A DNA stretch of 64,000 bases, taken from NCBI GenBank assembly GCA_002695065.1, contig NZNW01000133.1, forward strand, positions 1-64,000. Direction: 5' to 3'. Below are positions 7,204 through 15,858 of the stretch, piece by piece. The notes below the pieces were generated by a model. That model was not told the DNA's origin. It saw nothing but the letters and a program-made list of their open reading frames with translations, and did no database searches. Positions within the stretch are counted from its first letter, which is position 1. Each line of letters starts with the position of its first letter. A program made the position numbers and the translations under genes. This DNA is from Salinicola sp. Its GTDB lineage: Bacteria > Pseudomonadota > Gammaproteobacteria > Pseudomonadales > Halomonadaceae.

Positions 7204-7638
7204 TTAAATAATTCCCCACCGGCGAGAGTTTGCTTGCCCAGGAAGAGTGTCCCAAATCTGGCCTTTTGCTCGTGAGGCCTGCATTAGTTTTCCTACTTCA
7301 GGATCTGTGGGGGAGAGTGCTAAAGTGTCAATTATGATCGGGTTGCTTTGAAGTAATGTGACTTTAAGGACTGTGTCTTTGTATGTGTTAGGGCCACCCT
7401 GATTGGTGGTTAAGAGATTTATTCTGAATTGTTGGTTCCATTTATCACTTCCGCGCCAGTCCATTATTTTGCGTTGTGCGTTATTTTTGTATTTTATCGT
7501 TATGTATTCTCTGTATTGTTGGCCGGGAGTTAGGTTGAAAAAAAGGCGCCCAGCATCGTTAGGTATGTCTATTTGATTACCTGATCCACCACTTACTGCG
7601 TGGGCAGGAACCTCAATCCAAAGAACATTTCCCTGCAT
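7204..7638 (-). CDS. AT-rich hypothetical protein
   Basis: This 144-residue protein is predicted to be mostly beta strand (ITIKYKNNAQRK, FRINLLTT, VLKVTLLQ). It has no signal peptide and starts 7-8 bases after a GAGGAAG ribosome site. Base composition is clearly lower in GC than the flanking conjugation and methylase genes, as for the protease gene at 753. It is transcribed alone and against its neighbours. I recognise no family; it is best read as island cargo. Confidence 0.6.
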   Translation of the reverse strand: MQGNVLWIEVPAHAVSGGSGNQIDIPNDAGRLFFNLTPGQQYREYITIKYKNNAQRKIMDWRGSDKWNQQFRINLLTTNQGGPNTYKDTVLKVTLLQSNPIIIDTLALSPTDPEVGKLMQASRAKGQIWDTLPGQANSRRWGII

Positions 7639-7917: not shown

Positions 7918-8178
7918 ATGTCAAAACCACAGTGGTACCCTCCGATGGCAGGAAAAGTTAGAAAATTTGGTCCGCGCCTCACGGTGAGTCTCACCGGTCA
8001 AGATTACGACGACTTGTCGGCTCTCGCAGATAAGGATGATGTCTCTGTGTCATGGGTGGTGCGTCGCGCTATAGACGAGTATCTCGACCATCATCGTCAT
8101 GAAGTAGAGCCTGCTTTACCGCTGCGTCATCTGCAGAAAGCGGAGAGATCTGCCCTTCAGGCTGATGAAAAGCAATGA
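7918..8178 (+). CDS. Ribbon-helix-helix (CopG/Arc-type) DNA-binding protein
   Basis: This 86-residue protein, or 77 residues if ATG 7945 is used, has the RHH pattern: a strand PRLTVSLTGQDYD, a helix LSALADKDDVS, then VSWVVRRAIDEYL. Such proteins dimerise and bind operators. Its stop overlaps the ATG of the first methyltransferase (ATGA at 8175-8178), so it heads the four-gene operon and is probably its regulator or a DNA-specificity partner. Neither start has a convincing Shine-Dalgarno sequence. Confidence 0.7.
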   Translation: MSKPQWYPPMAGKVRKFGPRLTVSLTGQDYDDLSALADKDDVSVSWVVRRAIDEYLDHHRHEVEPALPLRHLQKAERSALQADEKQ

Positions 8179-10046
8179 TTGATGAGGGGGAGTCAGTGAA
8201 TCAGCTGGACGGCGCACAACTAATGATGAATCTTAGAGAGTCTGATGTTAGTGTGCTTTACGAGCGCGCTTTGCCTGCCAAGCGGACGGGGTCGCTGTAT
8301 GGCGCCTTTCCCTACCCGACAAAAATTTCTCCAGAGGCTATTGCCCTCTACATTGCTGCTCACACCAAGCCAGGCGATACCGTCTTCGATGGGTTTTCCG
8401 GCAGTGGCACGACTGGCCTTGCCGCACTGCTCTGTGAGTCTCCTTCTGATGAGCTACGCTCTGAGGCTGAGCGGCTTGGCCTGAAAGTTCAGTGGGGCGC
8501 ACGCAATGCTGTTCTCTATGAGATTGGAACACTCGGTGCATTCGTGGGCCGGACGTTAACGAATCCTCCCGATGTTAAAGCTTTCAGAGAAGCAGCTGAC
8601 CGGATCCTTCATGAAGCTAAAAGTGACTTGAGCTGGATGTATGAGGCAGTCGATCCGGATGGAAACATTGGCGCAATACGACACGCTATCTGGAGTGACA
8701 TATTCAGATGCCCGTCTTGCCTGCGGGAAGTATCGCTATGGGACTCCTGCGTCTCACTGGCTCCAGCACGTATTGCGTCTAAATTTAAATGTCCAGAATG
8801 CAGTCATGAAGCAAGTTTTGGTGAGGTTGAGCGTCTCACTGAGACCGTGGCAGATGATGTGACTGGAGCTGAAACCGTTCGCAGAGCACGAAAAATTGTA
8901 CGCGTATATGGAATCACTGGAAAGGTAAGATGGTCGCGCTCACCGACAAAAGATGATTTATCTTTGCTCGATAAGATTGCATGTGAGCCGGTGCCGGACT
9001 GTGTTCCGAATGTCGCTATACCTTGGGGAGACCTTTATCGACGTGGTTACCATCAGGGTATTACCCATTTGCACCACTTTTATACACGTCGAAATCTTAT
9101 TGTATTTGCAAAATTGTGGGAGCTCGCAGGAGCCTATGAAGGTAGATTGCGTGATGCTTTGCGTTTTTGGTTGCTAAGTTACAATGCCTCTCACGCGACG
9201 GTTATGACGCGTGTTGTGGCAAAATCTGATCAGAAAGATCTGGTAGTGACAAGCGCTCAGCCGGGTGTTCTCTATGTTAGCGGACTACCTGTCGAGAAGA
9301 GCTTGTTCGCTGGTCTGCAGCGTAAGCTAAAAACAATTGCGGACGCTTTTTCAGCTATACAAGGTCGTGCCGGTAAAGTAGAAGTTTGTCAGCATTCTAG
9401 CTGTGACGTTAACTTGGCTGATGGCAGTATTGATTATGTTTTCACTGATCCTCCTTTTGGCGGGAATATTCCATATGCTGAAATTAACTTTATTAATGAA
9501 GCTTGGCTTAGGAGCTTCACTGATCGGTCTGATGAAATTATTGTAAGTAGCAGTCAGAAGAAGACGGTTTTTGCGTACCAGAAGCTGTTAACTGAAGCTT
9601 TATCCGAGGTGCGGCGTATTCTCAAACCAGGAGGGAAGGCGACGCTAGTTTTTCATTCCGCGTCAGCTGAGATTTGGAATGCACTGCAGTCAGCCTATAC
9701 CGATGCGGGTTTAAACGTGGAATGTGCGGGCGTGCTCGATAAGACGCAAGGGAGCTTTAAGCAGGTTACTACCTCGGGTGCTGTGCGTGGCGATCCGGTA
9801 CTCCTTCTTGGGAAGGATCCTGAGAAAGAGAGGGTGTCACCTGGATGTGCTTGGGATATTGCAGAGCAACTCAGCCAGGAGTCGCTGTTGCTAGACCCGT
9901 CTGAACAAACGCCGCAAAGACTCTATTCTCGATTTGTGAATTATTTTCTTGCAAATCACCAGCAGGTGCCACTCAACGCGGACGTCTTTTATCGCTGGCA
10001 TTATGCTAAACTAGCATCTAAAGGAACTGGCTGTGAAAGGGACTGA
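8175..10046 (+). CDS. DNA methyltransferase with zinc-ribbon insertion
   Basis: The 623-residue protein has the SAM-binding motif FDGFSGSGTT at 71-80 and the catalytic motif DPPFGG at 425-430 followed by NIPYAE. These define an amino-methylating DNA methyltransferase (N6-adenine or N4-cytosine). Between them are two CxxC pairs (CPSC about 179, CPEC about 206), a zinc ribbon that may read DNA. The layout resembles DUF1156-type methylases found in large phage-defence operons. It is translationally coupled to the RHH gene upstream and overlaps the next methylase by 14 bp. No nuclease domain is evident in this protein. Confidence 0.85.
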   Translation: MIDEGESVNQLDGAQLMMNLRESDVSVLYERALPAKRTGSLYGAFPYPTKISPEAIALYIAAHTKPGDTVFDGFSGSGTTGLAALLCESPSDELRSEAERLGLKVQWGARNAVLYEIGTLGAFVGRTLTNPPDVKAFREAADRILHEAKSDLSWMYEAVDPDGNIGAIRHAIWSDIFRCPSCLREVSLWDSCVSLAPARIASKFKCPECSHEASFGEVERLTETVADDVTGAETVRRARKIVRVYGITGKVRWSRSPTKDDLSLLDKIACEPVPDCVPNVAIPWGDLYRRGYHQGITHLHHFYTRRNLIVFAKLWELAGAYEGRLRDALRFWLLSYNASHATVMTRVVAKSDQKDLVVTSAQPGVLYVSGLPVEKSLFAGLQRKLKTIADAFSAIQGRAGKVEVCQHSSCDVNLADGSIDYVFTDPPFGGNIPYAEINFINEAWLRSFTDRSDEIIVSSSQKKTVFAYQKLLTEALSEVRRILKPGGKATLVFHSASAEIWNALQSAYTDAGLNVECAGVLDKTQGSFKQVTTSGAVRGDPVLLLGKDPEKERVSPGCAWDIAEQLSQESLLLDPSEQTPQRLYSRFVNYFLANHQQVPLNADVFYRWHYAKLASKGTGCERD

Positions 10047-12132
10047 AGCACTTTCAGCGATTCGAGATGAGGCGCGAGCCTATGAACTGGCGCTGCCTCA
10101 CTCGCAACGTAAGGAGCTTGGTCAGTTTTTCACTGGTATGCAGCTAGGACGCCTCCTTGCACATCTTGCGCTCGAAGAGAAAACTAAATGCATTCTCGAC
10201 CCTATGGCAGGGAATGGAGACTTGCTTGATGCTGCGAGTGAAGCTGCTACAGAAAACGGAATAGCTCTGCAGTATATCGATGCGATCGAAATTGACGAGG
10301 CGACTGCAGCAATATGCGAAAACCGCCTTGAGAAAATTTGTTGCTTGAGCGTTGCCACTCCGCGTGTCTTATCTGGGGATGCCTTTAATCTCGTAACCCA
10401 TAAGGGAATACTTGAATCCGGTTATGACTTGGTCATAACAAATCCTCCATATGTACGCTATCAGGCATTGAACGGACGGGGGAAGCAGGTCCGCAGTGGG
10501 CTAGTAAACATAGTTGAGCAGCGCCTTTCTGATTCTGCAAAAGAGATATGGAAGGCACTCGCACTTGGATATTCTGGTCTTGCTGACTTGTCTATTCCAT
10601 CCTGGCTTCTTAGCGCGCTAATGGTTAAGCCGGGAGGGTGTCTTGCGGTAGTTGTGCCGGCTACATGGCGATCACGCGGGTATGCTGATGCTATCCGCTA
10701 CCTATTACTACGCTGTTTTCAGCTAGAGTTTATAATTGAGGATACTCAGCCAGGATGGTTTTCTGATGCGCTAGTTCGTACTCATCTCATCGTAGCGAGA
10801 AGACTGCCAGAAGACCACATCACTGAGCCCATGAGTGTACGGAAAGAGTGGCCAACAGCTCTTTGGGTCCAAGTTTCACCTGAAGCATCATCTCCCGAGT
10901 CTTTGGTAGGCAAAAATTTTTCCAGCGGTCAGGCAGAATCCGATTTTGCGGCATGGTGTCGTAAAATCGAGCGTCCGAACCTGCCCGGGATTAACGTTCG
11001 TAAGTTTTCACTTGAAAATGAATGGCACGAGTTGAACGCTCGAGCTTCCACGAGCTCGTGGATGAATAAACTCGAGCGGGCTGCATCAAAGCAGACAAAA
11101 CTCATACCGTCGAATTCAGCTGCTGCACTTGTGCCTGAAGCGCTTCGAGATATTATTCCGACTACACTTAACGTAAGCTCTCTGTGCACGCTCGATGCAA
11201 CAGGCATACGCGCCGGACAAGGCCTGCGAACAGGCTGCAACAGGTTTTTCTATGTACGGATCATTCAACAGATTGACGAAGAGCGTATGAGTGTTGTAAC
11301 TGACCCGGCGCTTGGCAATCGGACATTGCCCGTGCCGGCGACCGCTTTAAAACCAGTACTGCACCGTCAAGCCGATCTCGAAGCATGGCGCAACGGCTTA
11401 CTACCCAATACCCGCGTTCTTGACTTGCATCTTTTGCTTTTGCCGGAAGACGTCGAAGAGGCACGTATTGCAGCTAAACATGATTGGATGGAGCTGCCAG
11501 AGGTAATGCCGGAAGAGTTGGCCGAGCATGTGCGAAAAGCTGGCGAGATAACATTAGGAAATGCTGAAAATGCATTGCCAATTTCCGCAATGTCGGCGGT
11601 CAAAACTAATGTCAGGCCCGCGAGAGCTGATAGAATGCCGCGTTTCTGGTATATGCTCCCTGAGTTTAAGCCGCGCCATTTTGCCCAGGCGTTCGTGCCA
11701 CGTATTATTCATGGTGCGCCCCAAGTTTTTGCCAACACCGTGCCAGCCGTACTCATTGATGCTAATTTTTCCACGTTTTGGGCAGAGCGGGAAACTTGGA
11801 GTGCCGCGGGGCTAACGGCTTTTTTAAACAGCTCGTGGTGCCGTGCGGTGATGGAAGCGGCGGGAACACCGCTCGGCGGCGGCGCACTCAAGTTGGAAGC
11901 CGTTCACCTCCGGAAGATGCCCGTACCGCATCTTACATCCGAGGCATTGAAGAGCTTGAACAACATCGGGGAACGCTTACATGACCGCAAAGGCCAGCGG
12001 CAGATCGATCAGATCGTTCTTCGTGCATTGCTAGACAGTAACCCTTCCGAAACTGAAATCGACGTCTTCGCAGAGCGACTCAACGAGCGCCGTGCTGCAC
12101 TGGGCGCGGCTCGACAAAGAGGTGCAGCATGA
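10033..12132 (+). CDS. N6-adenine DNA methyltransferase (gamma-type, NPPY)
   Basis: This is a 699-residue class I methyltransferase. It has the pre-motif LGQFFTG (29-35), SAM motif I LDPMAGNGDLL (about 55-65) and catalytic NPPY (137-140) followed by VRYQ. This is the order typical of N6-adenine methylases of type I and IIG systems. The long C-terminal part (about 300-699) may hold target recognition. The GTG start lies inside the end of the preceding methylase gene, and the stop overlaps the next start by ATGA. Its sequence differs from the two neighbouring methylases, so the operon is not a simple duplication. Confidence 0.87.
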   Translation: MKGTEALSAIRDEARAYELALPHSQRKELGQFFTGMQLGRLLAHLALEEKTKCILDPMAGNGDLLDAASEAATENGIALQYIDAIEIDEATAAICENRLEKICCLSVATPRVLSGDAFNLVTHKGILESGYDLVITNPPYVRYQALNGRGKQVRSGLVNIVEQRLSDSAKEIWKALALGYSGLADLSIPSWLLSALMVKPGGCLAVVVPATWRSRGYADAIRYLLLRCFQLEFIIEDTQPGWFSDALVRTHLIVARRLPEDHITEPMSVRKEWPTALWVQVSPEASSPESLVGKNFSSGQAESDFAAWCRKIERPNLPGINVRKFSLENEWHELNARASTSSWMNKLERAASKQTKLIPSNSAAALVPEALRDIIPTTLNVSSLCTLDATGIRAGQGLRTGCNRFFYVRIIQQIDEERMSVVTDPALGNRTLPVPATALKPVLHRQADLEAWRNGLLPNTRVLDLHLLLLPEDVEEARIAAKHDWMELPEVMPEELAEHVRKAGEITLGNAENALPISAMSAVKTNVRPARADRMPRFWYMLPEFKPRHFAQAFVPRIIHGAPQVFANTVPAVLIDANFSTFWAERETWSAAGLTAFLNSSWCRAVMEAAGTPLGGGALKLEAVHLRKMPVPHLTSEALKSLNNIGERLHDRKGQRQIDQIVLRALLDSNPSETEIDVFAERLNERRAALGAARQRGAA

Positions 12133-15100
12133 GTGCTGACTTGTATCAGGCACGCGAAGCTATAAGACGCTGCTACGGGCTTCGGGAACGGGGTGTAGTG
12201 GAAGCTGTATTGCGAGGTGAGTTCCAATCTTGGTTGCGGCGTATCTTTTCGGAAGCGGAAGACCAACGTTGGCTAAATCATTATGGTGAAGGCGCAGAAG
12301 CTCACGCCAAAGTTGGTGTCGCAGCTGGCGTAGTTGCGAACCGCTTTATTGATAACCTTATCGGTTCCACAACGATCGAATATGAAGCGGACCTGCGTAT
12401 AAATGCGAAGTACGATGAGGGTTTTGAACAAGTCAGAGAACATACGGCGAGCCTGATCCGCCAAGGAATTCCCGTCTCTCAGGTGCGCGGCATTCTTTCA
12501 GATACGGTCGACTGGTACGCCTATGATGTTGCACTCGCTTCCTGCGTAGAGCCCGCTGGGTGCACCGTCGACGATATCCAACTTATAGAAGTGGAGAGGT
12601 TTGAGCCGACAGCTGACGACGAGCAGACTGCCGAGCGGCTAACGCTCTTTTTGCGCAAGCACCTTGCACGTGAGCGATCTCGGCCACTTGCAGCGGACAA
12701 TCTTGCGTTCGATCTAGGTCTCGAGAGCGCCGCCTATAGGCGAAATGTCGATGTGCTTATTGAACTGGTAGAGGCTGGCAGAAGCACTGATCCTGCTATC
12801 GCACTCGCTACTGATCTCTGGTCGCATTTTGTTGACCATTTGGAAGGTGATGTAGGAGGCTTCCGAAGTTCTCCCTACGTAGACGAAGTCTATCTGGTTC
12901 TACTGGCTCGTCTTTTAAGCGCAAATGCTCTCAAGGGAAAGGCAAGAATCAGTGACGACGATGAACTTCAGGGGATCCTGAGCGGCAATCTTTTTCGAGA
13001 CGCTTATCAACTCGACAACTTGGTAGAGAAAGATTACTTTGGCTGGATTACTGAGCCCGCGCACATCGGTGGGTTCCTCCAGGTTGCCCGAGAAATACAG
13101 CGCGACCTTTACGCATATGATTTTAGCTGGCGGGCGGAAGAAGATCTATTTGGCCGTCTCATGGCACAACTCGCACGACGGAGCCAGCGCAAGCTTCTCG
13201 GTCAGGAGTGGACTCCTGTATGGCTGGCCCGCCATCTTGCAGAGCGCTGTCTCGATGACCTCCCCGTCGGGGAAGCTCCCGAAATAGTCGACATGTGCTG
13301 CGGTTCTGGGGCGATGCTCGCCGAGGTGATCAAGGCGGTGAAGATACGCTACGGTTATGTGGACATTTGCCGCCTCGGTAAAGTGGTTACAGGTTTCGAT
13401 ATTGATCCGCTGGCTGTCGCGTTCGCAAAGACAACTTGGGTCATCACGCTGGCAGACGAAATCAAATCGGCGGCCGGTCCGGTTACGATCCCTGTTTACC
13501 ACGCAGATTCTCTATTCGCGGTCACACCGGTTTCGACTTCTCTGCCGATGCTCGGCGAGAGCGAAGCAATTGACATCACACTCGACGGCGAGACAATTCA
13601 GTTTCCTGCCGGCCTAGTACAACCGGAATATCGTGAGCTGTTCGACAGGCTTATTGACTGGGCTTACGATGAAGCACAGCAGATCGGCGGAGCGCCCCCG
13701 ACTGCAGGTGATGCTCGGGCTACACTCAGCACTGCGGCTGCAGCGTCTCACGTGACGCTCTCTGCTGAATTGAGGGAAGCTTCAGCCGTAGCATTATTGG
13801 CGCTTGCCTTGCGCATGAGAGAGCTTGCTGCTGCGGGGCGCAACGGCATTTGGGCCTTTATACTCCGCAATACATACAGGCCAGGACTTCTCGCTGGACA
13901 ATTCAATGGGCTGATTTCAAACCCGCCGTGGCTCGCGATGAGCGCGCTTGCTGATAACCCTTATCGTAAGATGCTCTCACGCCGTGCTGCCCTCTACGGT
14001 ATACAACCAACCGGACAGTCCTTCCTTCATCTTGAACTGGGTACGACACATCTGCTACATGCAGTCGATCGGTATCTTAAGCCAGAGGCTGCCGTTGCGT
14101 GCCTTGTTCCCGGTACTATCCTTAACGGCAACCACCACGAGCGGTTTCGTCAACGTGGTTATATCAGCTGCGACCGGCCGGTTGCGTTCACCGTTACAGA
14201 AATCTGGCAAGTTGCACCGGGTACTTTCAAATATCCTGGCGCAGCAGTAATCGGGAAAAAAGAAGGTAACGTTGCCGTTGCAGACAATTCGGTTGCTGCG
14301 GGGGCGGTCGCCTGCAAGGAGGATGTCCAGCCTGTCAGTTTTGCCATCCGCAATATCGGTGAAGCTCGTACCGCTTGGGTCCTTGAGAGCGGCGGCATGC
14401 CAGCAGCAGCAGGCGGCGAAGAAATATCCAGGCAGGGTGCCGACATTATGCCTCGCACCGCTGTCTGCATCGAAATCCTGAATGACACGGGCCAGGAATA
14501 TCGTGTCGATACTCCGCAGCCCGGCTCGGATTGGGGCTTTACCGTCAAGCAGGCGAAGGAACTCAAGGGAGAGCGTTTTCCTGGCTACGTTGCTTCACAA
14601 TTCATCCACCGCATCGCGCAATCGGAAAACCTACTGCCTTTCGTTTTCGGCCCCCACCGGGCGCCGGTTGCTATTCCAGCCTGTCGGGACACGGAGGGCG
14701 TGTGGCAGTTTTATGAGCCTGTCGACATTCGCCGCATGGGCTTTACGCGCACAGCGCGTCGTTTCTCGGAAATTGACAATAAGCTTGCGAAAATTGGCAA
14801 TAGTACGCTCGCATATCGCATCGATTTCCGGCGCAAACTTTCTATTCAGAACTTTGGCGACGAGGGCTTTGTTGTGTTATCGGGCGCGGGTGGCAAGCAT
14901 ATCTGCGCAGCTTGTTTGCCGATCGAAGAGGCGGCTGAGCTAGTCATCGATCAGACACTGTACTGGCAGGTCGTCACTGAAGAGGCCGAGGCCTGGTTTA
15001 GAACAGGTATTCTCAACAGCAGTGCTCTCACTGAAGCCATCTTGCCCTTCAATCCGGAAGGGGATTTCGGGCCGCGGCATATTCATACGCTGCCATACCG

Positions 15101-15365
15101 CTTAATACCACCATACGATTCGGCGAATGAAGACCACCGCGCATTAGCTATAGTGACGAGGAAAATTTCAGAGGAAGCCACAGCATTTACGGAGGAGAAC
15201 ACCTATATCGGTGATCCAAATCGCTCACTACCGGTTCGTCGCAGAAAGATGCGTGAGTATCTTGCCGAAAGTGACGCCTATCTGGAGCTCAACCGGCTGA
15301 GTGCCGGCATCCTTGGGACAGGACTTGCGACCAGTGAAGCAGAAGCGTCGGGGCGCTGTTTTTGA
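12129..15365 (+). CDS. Large N6-adenine DNA methyltransferase with N-terminal extension
   Basis: This 1078-residue protein has LGQEWTP at 357-363, SAM motif I IVDMCCGSGAML at about 386-397 and catalytic NPPW at 598-601. About 350 residues precede the methylase core. They contain YEADLRINAKYDEGFEQV (85-102), where E84, D88 and K94 could form a nuclease-like acidic/lysine triad; this is a guess from spacing. The C-terminal 450 residues probably recognise DNA. It closes the operon; a spacer with no gene follows, then the tRNA fragment at 15671. A type IIG-like enzyme with both cutting and methylating activity is one possibility. Confidence 0.82.
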   Translation: MSADLYQAREAIRRCYGLRERGVVEAVLRGEFQSWLRRIFSEAEDQRWLNHYGEGAEAHAKVGVAAGVVANRFIDNLIGSTTIEYEADLRINAKYDEGFEQVREHTASLIRQGIPVSQVRGILSDTVDWYAYDVALASCVEPAGCTVDDIQLIEVERFEPTADDEQTAERLTLFLRKHLARERSRPLAADNLAFDLGLESAAYRRNVDVLIELVEAGRSTDPAIALATDLWSHFVDHLEGDVGGFRSSPYVDEVYLVLLARLLSANALKGKARISDDDELQGILSGNLFRDAYQLDNLVEKDYFGWITEPAHIGGFLQVAREIQRDLYAYDFSWRAEEDLFGRLMAQLARRSQRKLLGQEWTPVWLARHLAERCLDDLPVGEAPEIVDMCCGSGAMLAEVIKAVKIRYGYVDICRLGKVVTGFDIDPLAVAFAKTTWVITLADEIKSAAGPVTIPVYHADSLFAVTPVSTSLPMLGESEAIDITLDGETIQFPAGLVQPEYRELFDRLIDWAYDEAQQIGGAPPTAGDARATLSTAAAASHVTLSAELREASAVALLALALRMRELAAAGRNGIWAFILRNTYRPGLLAGQFNGLISNPPWLAMSALADNPYRKMLSRRAALYGIQPTGQSFLHLELGTTHLLHAVDRYLKPEAAVACLVPGTILNGNHHERFRQRGYISCDRPVAFTVTEIWQVAPGTFKYPGAAVIGKKEGNVAVADNSVAAGAVACKEDVQPVSFAIRNIGEARTAWVLESGGMPAAAGGEEISRQGADIMPRTAVCIEILNDTGQEYRVDTPQPGSDWGFTVKQAKELKGERFPGYVASQFIHRIAQSENLLPFVFGPHRAPVAIPACRDTEGVWQFYEPVDIRRMGFTRTARRFSEIDNKLAKIGNSTLAYRIDFRRKLSIQNFGDEGFVVLSGAGGKHICAACLPIEEAAELVIDQTLYWQVVTEEAEAWFRTGILNSSALTEAILPFNPEGDFGPRHIHTLPYRLIPPYDSANEDHRALAIVTRKISEEATAFTEENTYIGDPNRSLPVRRRKMREYLAESDAYLELNRLSAGILGTGLATSEAEASGRCF

Positions 15366-15670: not shown

Positions 15671-15721
15671 GCGGACTCAATAATACCTTGGTCGTAGGTT
15701 CAAGTCCTACTGGGCCCACCA
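15671..15721 (+). other. tRNA 3' fragment, putative att site (island end)
   Basis: The sequence reads as the 3' portion of a CAU-anticodon-type tRNA: a degraded anticodon arm (GCGGACTCAATAATACC), TTGGTC, a perfect T arm (GTAGG TTCAAGT CCTAC), acceptor strand TGGGCCC and ACCA. No matching 5' half is upstream, so it is not a functional tRNA gene. Such 3' fragments are left when an element integrates into a tRNA gene. It therefore most likely marks one end of the island whose recombinase is at the window start. Confidence 0.7.
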
Positions 15722-15858
15722 TCTTCGAAGTCTTCTCATTCATAACGAGTCCTTTGACCAAGGACTGCCAGATTGATGTTAGCCGCTCGATATAATCCCG
15801 AACCTGTCGAACGCCTAGGTTATGACCTCAATAATGAGATGAAGGTGCATACCCACCA

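What the first reader, a model, noticed from the sequence alone, without database searches (positions are those of the whole stretch)
7918..15365. Four-gene operon: RHH protein and three different DNA methyltransferases, no obvious nuclease or helicase
Four genes overlap stop-to-start (ATGA at 8175 and 12129, a 14-bp overlap at 10033). They encode a ribbon-helix-helix protein, a zinc-ribbon methylase (DPPF), an NPPY methylase and a 1078-residue NPPW methylase with a 350-residue N-terminal extension. The three motif sets differ, so this is not a duplication. It lies in an island ending at a tRNA fragment. I know of no described defence or epigenetic system made of exactly these parts; a novel modification-only or modification-plus-cleavage system is the inference.
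Basis: partly seen in the sequence, partly recalled or inferred. Interest (0 to 1): 0.78.

Follow-up and report, generated by a model that had tools for sequence, protein, structure and literature searches.

The report
Three-methylase operon, nuclease partner missing
A mobile island carries three different DNA-methylating enzymes that, in several relatives, sit beside a DNA-cutting enzyme of a known restriction type, so this looks like a rare and apparently undescribed bacterial self/non-self marking system whose cutting half is missing or reduced here.

Summary
The four genes are real and as described. The methylase trio (g2 PglXI-like, g3 Eco57I-like, g4 type-IIG-like) recurs in the same order in 10 of 11 other loci holding g2 and g3 (one lacks g4; one has g2 frame-broken): proteobacteria, an Acidobacteriaceae MAG, a Hymenobacter plasmid, viral-collection contigs. 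'No nuclease' does not hold for the family. First, 7 of 12 loci (window included) also encode a BfiI/NgoFVII-type PLD endonuclease; among 394 genomes of one family the full-length form occurs in exactly the three genomes with full-length g3. Second, g4's N-terminal extension resembles the nuclease region of type IIG enzymes (BpuSI, DrdV), with ExE in place of ExK in 11 of 11 operon copies. In the window's genome no PLD domain was found: only a divergent 144-aa gene (7204-7638, minus) matching the PLD protein's C-terminal domain. Best reading: a multi-methylase restriction-modification family resembling BfiI in parts; this island copy is probably modification-only, like plasmid and phage-like copies, perhaps shielding the element. 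Whether g4 cuts is open (BamHI also has E for K). Eight searches of an open paper library showed no description. New variant of a known kind; methylation and cleavage untested.

The parts
7204..7638 (-). 144-aa gene homologous to the C-terminal (putative DNA-recognition) domain of the PLD endonuclease; no PLD domain; divergent from the operon, with AGAGGAAG upstream of its ATG
   Evidence: blastp 27% id E 4e-8; HMM E 8.2e-8; only hit among 906 window ORFs, none among the same ORFs reversed; sequence
7918..8178 (+). g1, ribbon-helix-helix (CopG-type) protein, likely operon regulator (inferred); start may be 7945
   Evidence: Pfam RHH_1 E 4.1e-7; relatives in 5 other loci: L013, L038, L039, L055, L056
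8175..10046 (+). g2, PglXI-like DNA methyltransferase with zinc ribbon, motifs FDGFSGSGTT and DPPF
   Evidence: PADLOC PglXI E 3.9e-132; Pfam N6_N4_Mtase; motif check
10033..12132 (+). g3, Eco57I-like N6-adenine methyltransferase, DPMAGNGD and NPPY
   Evidence: Pfam N6_Mtase/Eco57I; PDB profile match to M.BseCI 1.8e-9
12129..15365 (+). g4, type-IIG-like protein: N-terminal nuclease-like region, N6 methyltransferase core (DMCCGSG, NPPW), C-terminal region probably target recognition (inferred)
   Evidence: PADLOC REase_MTase_IIG E 4e-46; VIA-align
12351..12395 (+). g4 residues 75-89, D75...IE84YE86ADL: place of the PD-(D/E)XK motif, with E for the usual K
   Evidence: alignment; 11 of 11 operon copies ExE, 9 of 11 solitary relatives examined ExK
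15686..15722 (+). 37-bp repeat of the tRNA-Met 3' end: island boundary (att, inferred)

Best explanation
The operon is the modification half of a restriction-modification family built from two or three dissimilar methyltransferases (g2, g3, usually g4) whose usual restriction partner is a BfiI/NgoFVII-type PLD endonuclease. Shown by sequence: the conserved methylase trio, the association with the PLD gene, intact methylase motifs, and absence of a detectable PLD domain in this genome assembly. Inferred: g2 and g3 methylate the two strands (or halves) of an asymmetric site, as the two BfiI methylases do; g4 adds a further modification; the PLD protein cuts unmodified DNA; the RHH protein represses the operon. 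In the window the partner is reduced to (or replaced by) a stand-alone copy of the PLD protein's C-terminal domain, so this island copy most likely only marks DNA and shields the element from complete versions of the system, the lone domain perhaps binding the same site as a decoy or regulator.
For: PLD gene in 7 of 12 loci with g2 and g3. Each of 5 genomes searched whole (those of L012, L013, L014, L038, L039) has exactly one PLD match at E<=0.1, in the locus. In 394 genomes of the family of L013, the 3 with full-length g3 (E 0 to 4e-282; two further partial g3 matches) are exactly the 3 with full-length PLD (E<1e-100; seven further partial matches); one of the three is a seed, and the chance of the other two coinciding is 1.3e-5 if kinship is ignored. 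The 9 PLD proteins compared keep HxK...SAN...E (5 from these loci, 4 from other plasmids; L055 and L056 show it too), like BfiI H105xK107, N125, E136 (PMC4081073 section 39). BfiI has two methylases, one per strand (PMC4267653 passages). L012 has g2-g3-PLD with no g4 in its MAG. Window genome: only the C-terminal domain found. PLD-less trios sit on a plasmid (L006, whole record searched), on contigs with phage genes (L059, L060) and on this island.
Against: No activity is known for any part. The window's C-terminal-domain protein is only 27-33% identical to the PLD proteins although its methylases are 62-76% identical to those of L039, so it is not a fresh remnant of that PLD gene and its role is a guess; no relative of it was found in plasmids, phages (three E 0.05 matches only) or viral contigs. 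The assembly is incomplete (96%), and sequence between C94 and C136 is unplaced. g4 might itself cut. Of four PLD proteins scanned only L013 passes Pfam's RE_NgoFVII cut-off. The C-terminal domain has no PDB sequence match and its model is unusable (pLDDT 43), so 'B3-like' is inferred from position. PLD relatives also pair with an MmeI-type enzyme, so the partner is not exclusive. Five of 12 loci show no full PLD gene, though flanks are limited (2.4 kb downstream of g4 in L059).
Confidence: 0.55

Rival explanations
1. g4 is an active type IIG/IIL restriction-modification enzyme with an ExE active site; the window operon is self-sufficient modification plus cleavage, and the PLD protein in relatives is an extra or back-up nuclease.
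Confidence: 0.25
2. A BREX-like exclusion system reduced to its methylases: PglXI-type marking with unknown effectors and no cleavage.
For: g2 is closest to type-3 BREX PglXI (PADLOC E 3.9e-132; 35% to the BREX-3 methylase of L007).
Against: No PglZ, BrxC, BrxF or BrxHII match among the island ORFs that were scanned (not every small ORF was); g2 matches positions 112-697 of the 919 of the PglXI model; the partner that tracks g3 is PLD.
Confidence: 0.07
3. Orphan epigenetic regulators or an anti-restriction methylation module of mobile elements with no historical link to the PLD nuclease.
For: PLD-less trios on a plasmid, contigs with phage genes and this island; there other defence-type genes are the neighbours: QatC-like in L057, McrB-like AAA in L060, DUF2326/Lamassu-like in L059, ABC-3C in L006.
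Against: Co-occurrence with the PLD gene in the family of L013 and operon contiguity in L012, L013, L038, L055, L056.
Confidence: 0.13

Closest known systems
BfiI restriction-modification system (type IIS, PLD endonuclease)
   Same: Relatives' partner is a ~360-aa PLD protein with HxK, N and E residues and a separate C-terminal domain; more than one methylase per system
   Different: BfiI has two methylases; here usually three dissimilar ones, one PglXI-like and one IIG-like; PLD domain missing in the window
NgoAVII / CglI systems (PLD R-protein plus ATPase)
   Same: PLD R-protein; PDB profile match to R.NgoAVII 4rct, E 0.0084
   Different: They have a C5 methylase and a required DEAD-family ATPase (PMC4267653 passages); none was seen as part of these operons
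Type IIG / IIL enzymes (BpuSI, DrdV, MmeI, BseRI)
   Same: g4 layout: nuclease-like domain, helical region, N6 methylase, C-terminal region (the BseRI name comes from the annotation of relative L016)
   Different: ExE instead of ExK; co-operonic with two further methylases
Type-3 BREX methylase PglXI/BrxXI
   Same: g2 core
   Different: g2 lacks about 110 N-terminal and 220 C-terminal model positions; no other BREX gene found among the island ORFs scanned

Membership tests
BfiI/NgoFVII-type PLD restriction-modification | PLD endonuclease with HxK...N...E (window copy) | tested here: not met
   Window genome has no detectable PLD domain; so the window copy is not filed as a member
BfiI/NgoFVII-type PLD restriction-modification | PLD endonuclease with HxK...N...E (related loci) | tested here: met
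   7 of 12 loci carry it; motif in 9 of 9 PLD proteins compared and in L055, L056
BfiI/NgoFVII-type PLD restriction-modification | RE_NgoFVII Pfam family above cut-off | tested here: inconclusive
   L013 24.5 bits against 23.8; L012 21.9, L014 17.6, L011 18.2 below; others not scanned
BfiI/NgoFVII-type PLD restriction-modification | B3-like C-terminal DNA-binding domain | tested here: inconclusive
   No PDB sequence match; structure model pLDDT 43
BfiI/NgoFVII-type PLD restriction-modification | methylation protects against cleavage | not testable with these tools
   needs biochemistry
Type IIG enzyme (g4) | nuclease-type domain and N6 methylase in one chain | tested here: met
Type IIG enzyme (g4) | PD-(D/E)XK catalytic lysine | tested here: not met
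   E in place of K in 11 of 11 operon copies; the BamHI precedent leaves activity open
BREX type 3 | PglXI methylase | tested here: inconclusive
   Best PADLOC match, E 3.9e-132, but partial: 112-697 of 919
BREX type 3 | PglZ, BrxC, BrxF, BrxHII present | tested here: not met
   No match among the island ORFs scanned

The most novel reading that the evidence does not exclude
A three-methylase 'self code' that is read by exchangeable effectors: usually a PLD endonuclease (itself swapped between lineages), elsewhere perhaps Qat-like, McrB-like or SMC/ABC-ATPase modules found next to the trio, while mobile elements carry the code without a nuclease as a passport. In this window the effector would be cut down to its reader domain.
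Probability: 0.12. Interest if true: 0.78.

Novelty: new variant of a known kind. Interest (0 to 1): 0.55.

Why it matters
If right, it defines a restriction-modification family that combines a BREX-type, a type-II-type and a type-IIG-type methylase with a PLD nuclease, a set that no match in the libraries used here names, and shows mobile elements carrying only the marking half. It makes a simple question testable: do three separate methylations form one shared protection code, and can an element use it to pass restriction?

Tried and rejected
Duplication of one methylase: rejected, the three match different families. BREX: rejected as membership. A PLD gene elsewhere in this genome: two searches found only the window domain. 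AlphaFold of the 144-aa protein: pLDDT 43, not used; no fold search made with it. Foldseek of the g4 N-terminus gave nothing at E<=0.001; only the realignment of 668 of its ranked chains put type IIG enzymes on top. PDB sequence search with the g4 profile gave nothing at E<=0.1; hhalign of the g4 N-terminus to the MmeI-like N-terminus was insignificant. Idea 'PLD compensates a dead g4 nuclease' was dropped as a claim: PLD also pairs with an MmeI-type enzyme that reads ExK, two solitary copies have ExE of which one (L011) has a PLD neighbour and one (L021) none in the flank held, and E is invariant in the operon copies. The solitary set is a sample: 10 of the 41 plasmid records plus the window genome's own copy. 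Samples without new finds: 146 relatives of the window genome with g4 (own genome, and one weak 56-residue match); 398 genomes of its phylum, not named by the tool, with g3 (own only); 396 genomes of the phylum of L014 (the seed, and one partial match). Phage records: no g3 match. Viral scans with g3 and with the 144-aa protein found none; the g3 scan missed contigs that the g2 scan later showed to carry g3, so these scans are not exhaustive. To check the PLD-less contigs I fetched more flank: no PLD-profile match in the whole contig of L057 (17.4 kb), in L060 with about 10 kb on either side of g4, or in L059 up to the contig end 2.4 kb downstream. Loci L058 and L061 (g2 plus a 70-aa piece of g3; no g4 or PLD) and L062-L070 (distant or partial g2 matches) were left out of the 12-locus counts. 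L055/L056 (88-96% identical) and L059/L060 (90-92%) are not independent, so 12 loci are about 10.

Full report
Observation. Pfam, PADLOC and NCBIfam place g1 as CopG-type RHH, g2 as an N6/N4 methylase closest to PglXI of type-3 BREX, g3 as Eco57I-like N6 methylase and g4 as type-IIG-like (PADLOC lists capped at 25 families). Methylase motifs are intact.

Relatives. A Hymenobacter plasmid carries g2 (broken by a frame change), g3 and g4 in the same order. A pattern-based scan of the species-genome collection with a g3 alignment gave three loci: L012 (gammaproteobacterial MAG), L013 (Rhizobium tropici), L014 (Acidobacteriaceae MAG). Of 394 genomes of the family of L013, three carry full-length g3: L013 itself, L038 and L039; two more have partial matches. 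A viral-contig scan with g2 added L055, L056, L057, L059 and L060. With the window these are 12 loci holding g2 and g3; g4 is in 11 (not L012, whose MAG has no match). L039 is closest to the window: RHH 73%, g2 76%, g3 62%, g4 73%. RHH is in 6 of 12 (window, L013, L038, L039, L055, L056). A GTG giving the 14-bp g2/g3 overlap is kept in window, L013, L038 and L039, not in L012, L014, L006, and third codon positions are poorly conserved while first and second are well conserved.

A fifth gene. Seven of the 12 loci (L012, L013, L014, L038, L039, L055, L056) carry a ~360-aa PLD protein. In L012, L013 and L038 it starts 3-14 bp after the last methylase gene; in L055 and L056 its start overlaps the end of g4; in L014 it lies upstream of g2; in L039 it lies about 3 kb downstream, convergent, behind an SMC-like ATPase gene. 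Pfam calls it NgoFVII restriction endonuclease N-terminal PLD domain (L013 above cut-off; L012, L014 and the related L011 below); profile matches in the PDB are SauUSI (1.6e-6), R.NgoAVII (0.0084) and BfiI (0.65). The nine PLD proteins compared, five from these loci, keep HxK...SAN...E, the residues described for BfiI (PMC4081073, section 39 read). Among the 394 genomes ten match the PLD profile at E<=1e-6; the three with E<1e-100 are exactly those with full-length g3, the other seven are partial matches. The profile held L013's protein but not those of L038 and L039. PLD and methylase similarities disagree: L039's PLD is 64% identical to L014's but 43-44% to L013's and L038's, while L039's methylases go with the window, L013 and L038, so the effector has probably been exchanged.

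The window lacks the PLD domain. Divergent from the operon lies a 144-aa gene (7204-7638, minus) that matches only the C-terminal ~140 residues of the PLD proteins (E 4e-8, E 8.2e-8; sole hit among 906 window ORFs, no hit in the reversed ORFs). Two searches of the genome found no PLD domain. In BfiI and NgoAVII this place is held by a B3-like domain, and isolated B3 domains bind the recognition site as monomers (PMC4267653 passages). I could not show that the domain here is B3-like.

PLD-less copies. Besides the window these are L006 (plasmid, whole record searched), L057 (serine recombinase upstream, QatC-like gene downstream; whole 17.4-kb contig searched), and L059 and L060, flanked by phage genes such as endolysin, DNA polymerase or exonuclease, with a Cro-type HTH gene in the RHH position (the HTH was profiled in L059 and read by eye in L060). 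L059 could be followed only 2.4 kb past g4, less than the distance of the PLD gene in L039.

Island. Window 15686-15722 repeats the 3' end of an intact tRNA-Met on contig C94; a piece that I read as a tyrosine recombinase (31.7% to an L039 ORF), T4SS- and TrbL-type genes and a NikA-like gene just under its cut-off lie between contig start and operon. Beyond the intact tRNA, C94 starts a gene that reads like hsdM (my reading; no Pfam match for its 40 residues), so the left part of the island is not assembled with the window.

Mechanism. Shown: conserved trio, linked PLD gene, missing PLD domain here, intact methylase motifs. Inferred: adenine methylation, shared recognition, protection from the PLD enzyme, repression by RHH. 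BfiI is known to use one methylase per strand, which L012 (g2, g3, PLD) resembles most.

Literature. Eight searches were answered (two returned no paper; 77, 93, 117 and 118 list only the best 10-15). No listed title or abstract start describes this gene set. Of PMC12839542, PMC4267653 and PMC4081073 I saw passages, and of the last section 39 whole. Papers outside the open library were not searched.

Noticed in passing
G000:C41:758-3631 (L002): A solitary g4-like type IIG gene with ExK in the same genome, 24-26% identical to g4.
   Followed up: partly
753-1856: Trypsin-like protein matching phage-defence candidate PDC-S45 (E 2.9e-18), next to the integrase piece.
   Followed up: no
L023, L024, L025: Methylobacterium/Methylorubrum plasmids with a ~938-aa methyltransferase directly followed by a relative of the PLD nuclease; the L023 enzyme is MmeI-family by Pfam: a recurrent IIL-plus-PLD pair.
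   Followed up: partly
L057 11335-13948 (longer in L073): Trio followed by a 264-aa gene and a QatC-like gene (PADLOC E 2.2e-56).
   Followed up: partly
L060 15144-17411; L072 15551-16855: Trio followed by a McrB-like AAA_5 gene and a further gene that may be its partner (my reading).
   Followed up: partly
L064 5691-9620: A 1310-aa protein that holds two g2-like methylase domains in tandem.
   Followed up: no
L006 14001-15796: Hymenobacter plasmid g2 is split by a frame change into two overlapping ORFs.
   Followed up: no
L013 1924-5660: McrBC-like gene pair (my reading; the larger protein matches PADLOC REase_II, E 4.9e-18) a few kb from the operon in Rhizobium tropici.
   Followed up: no
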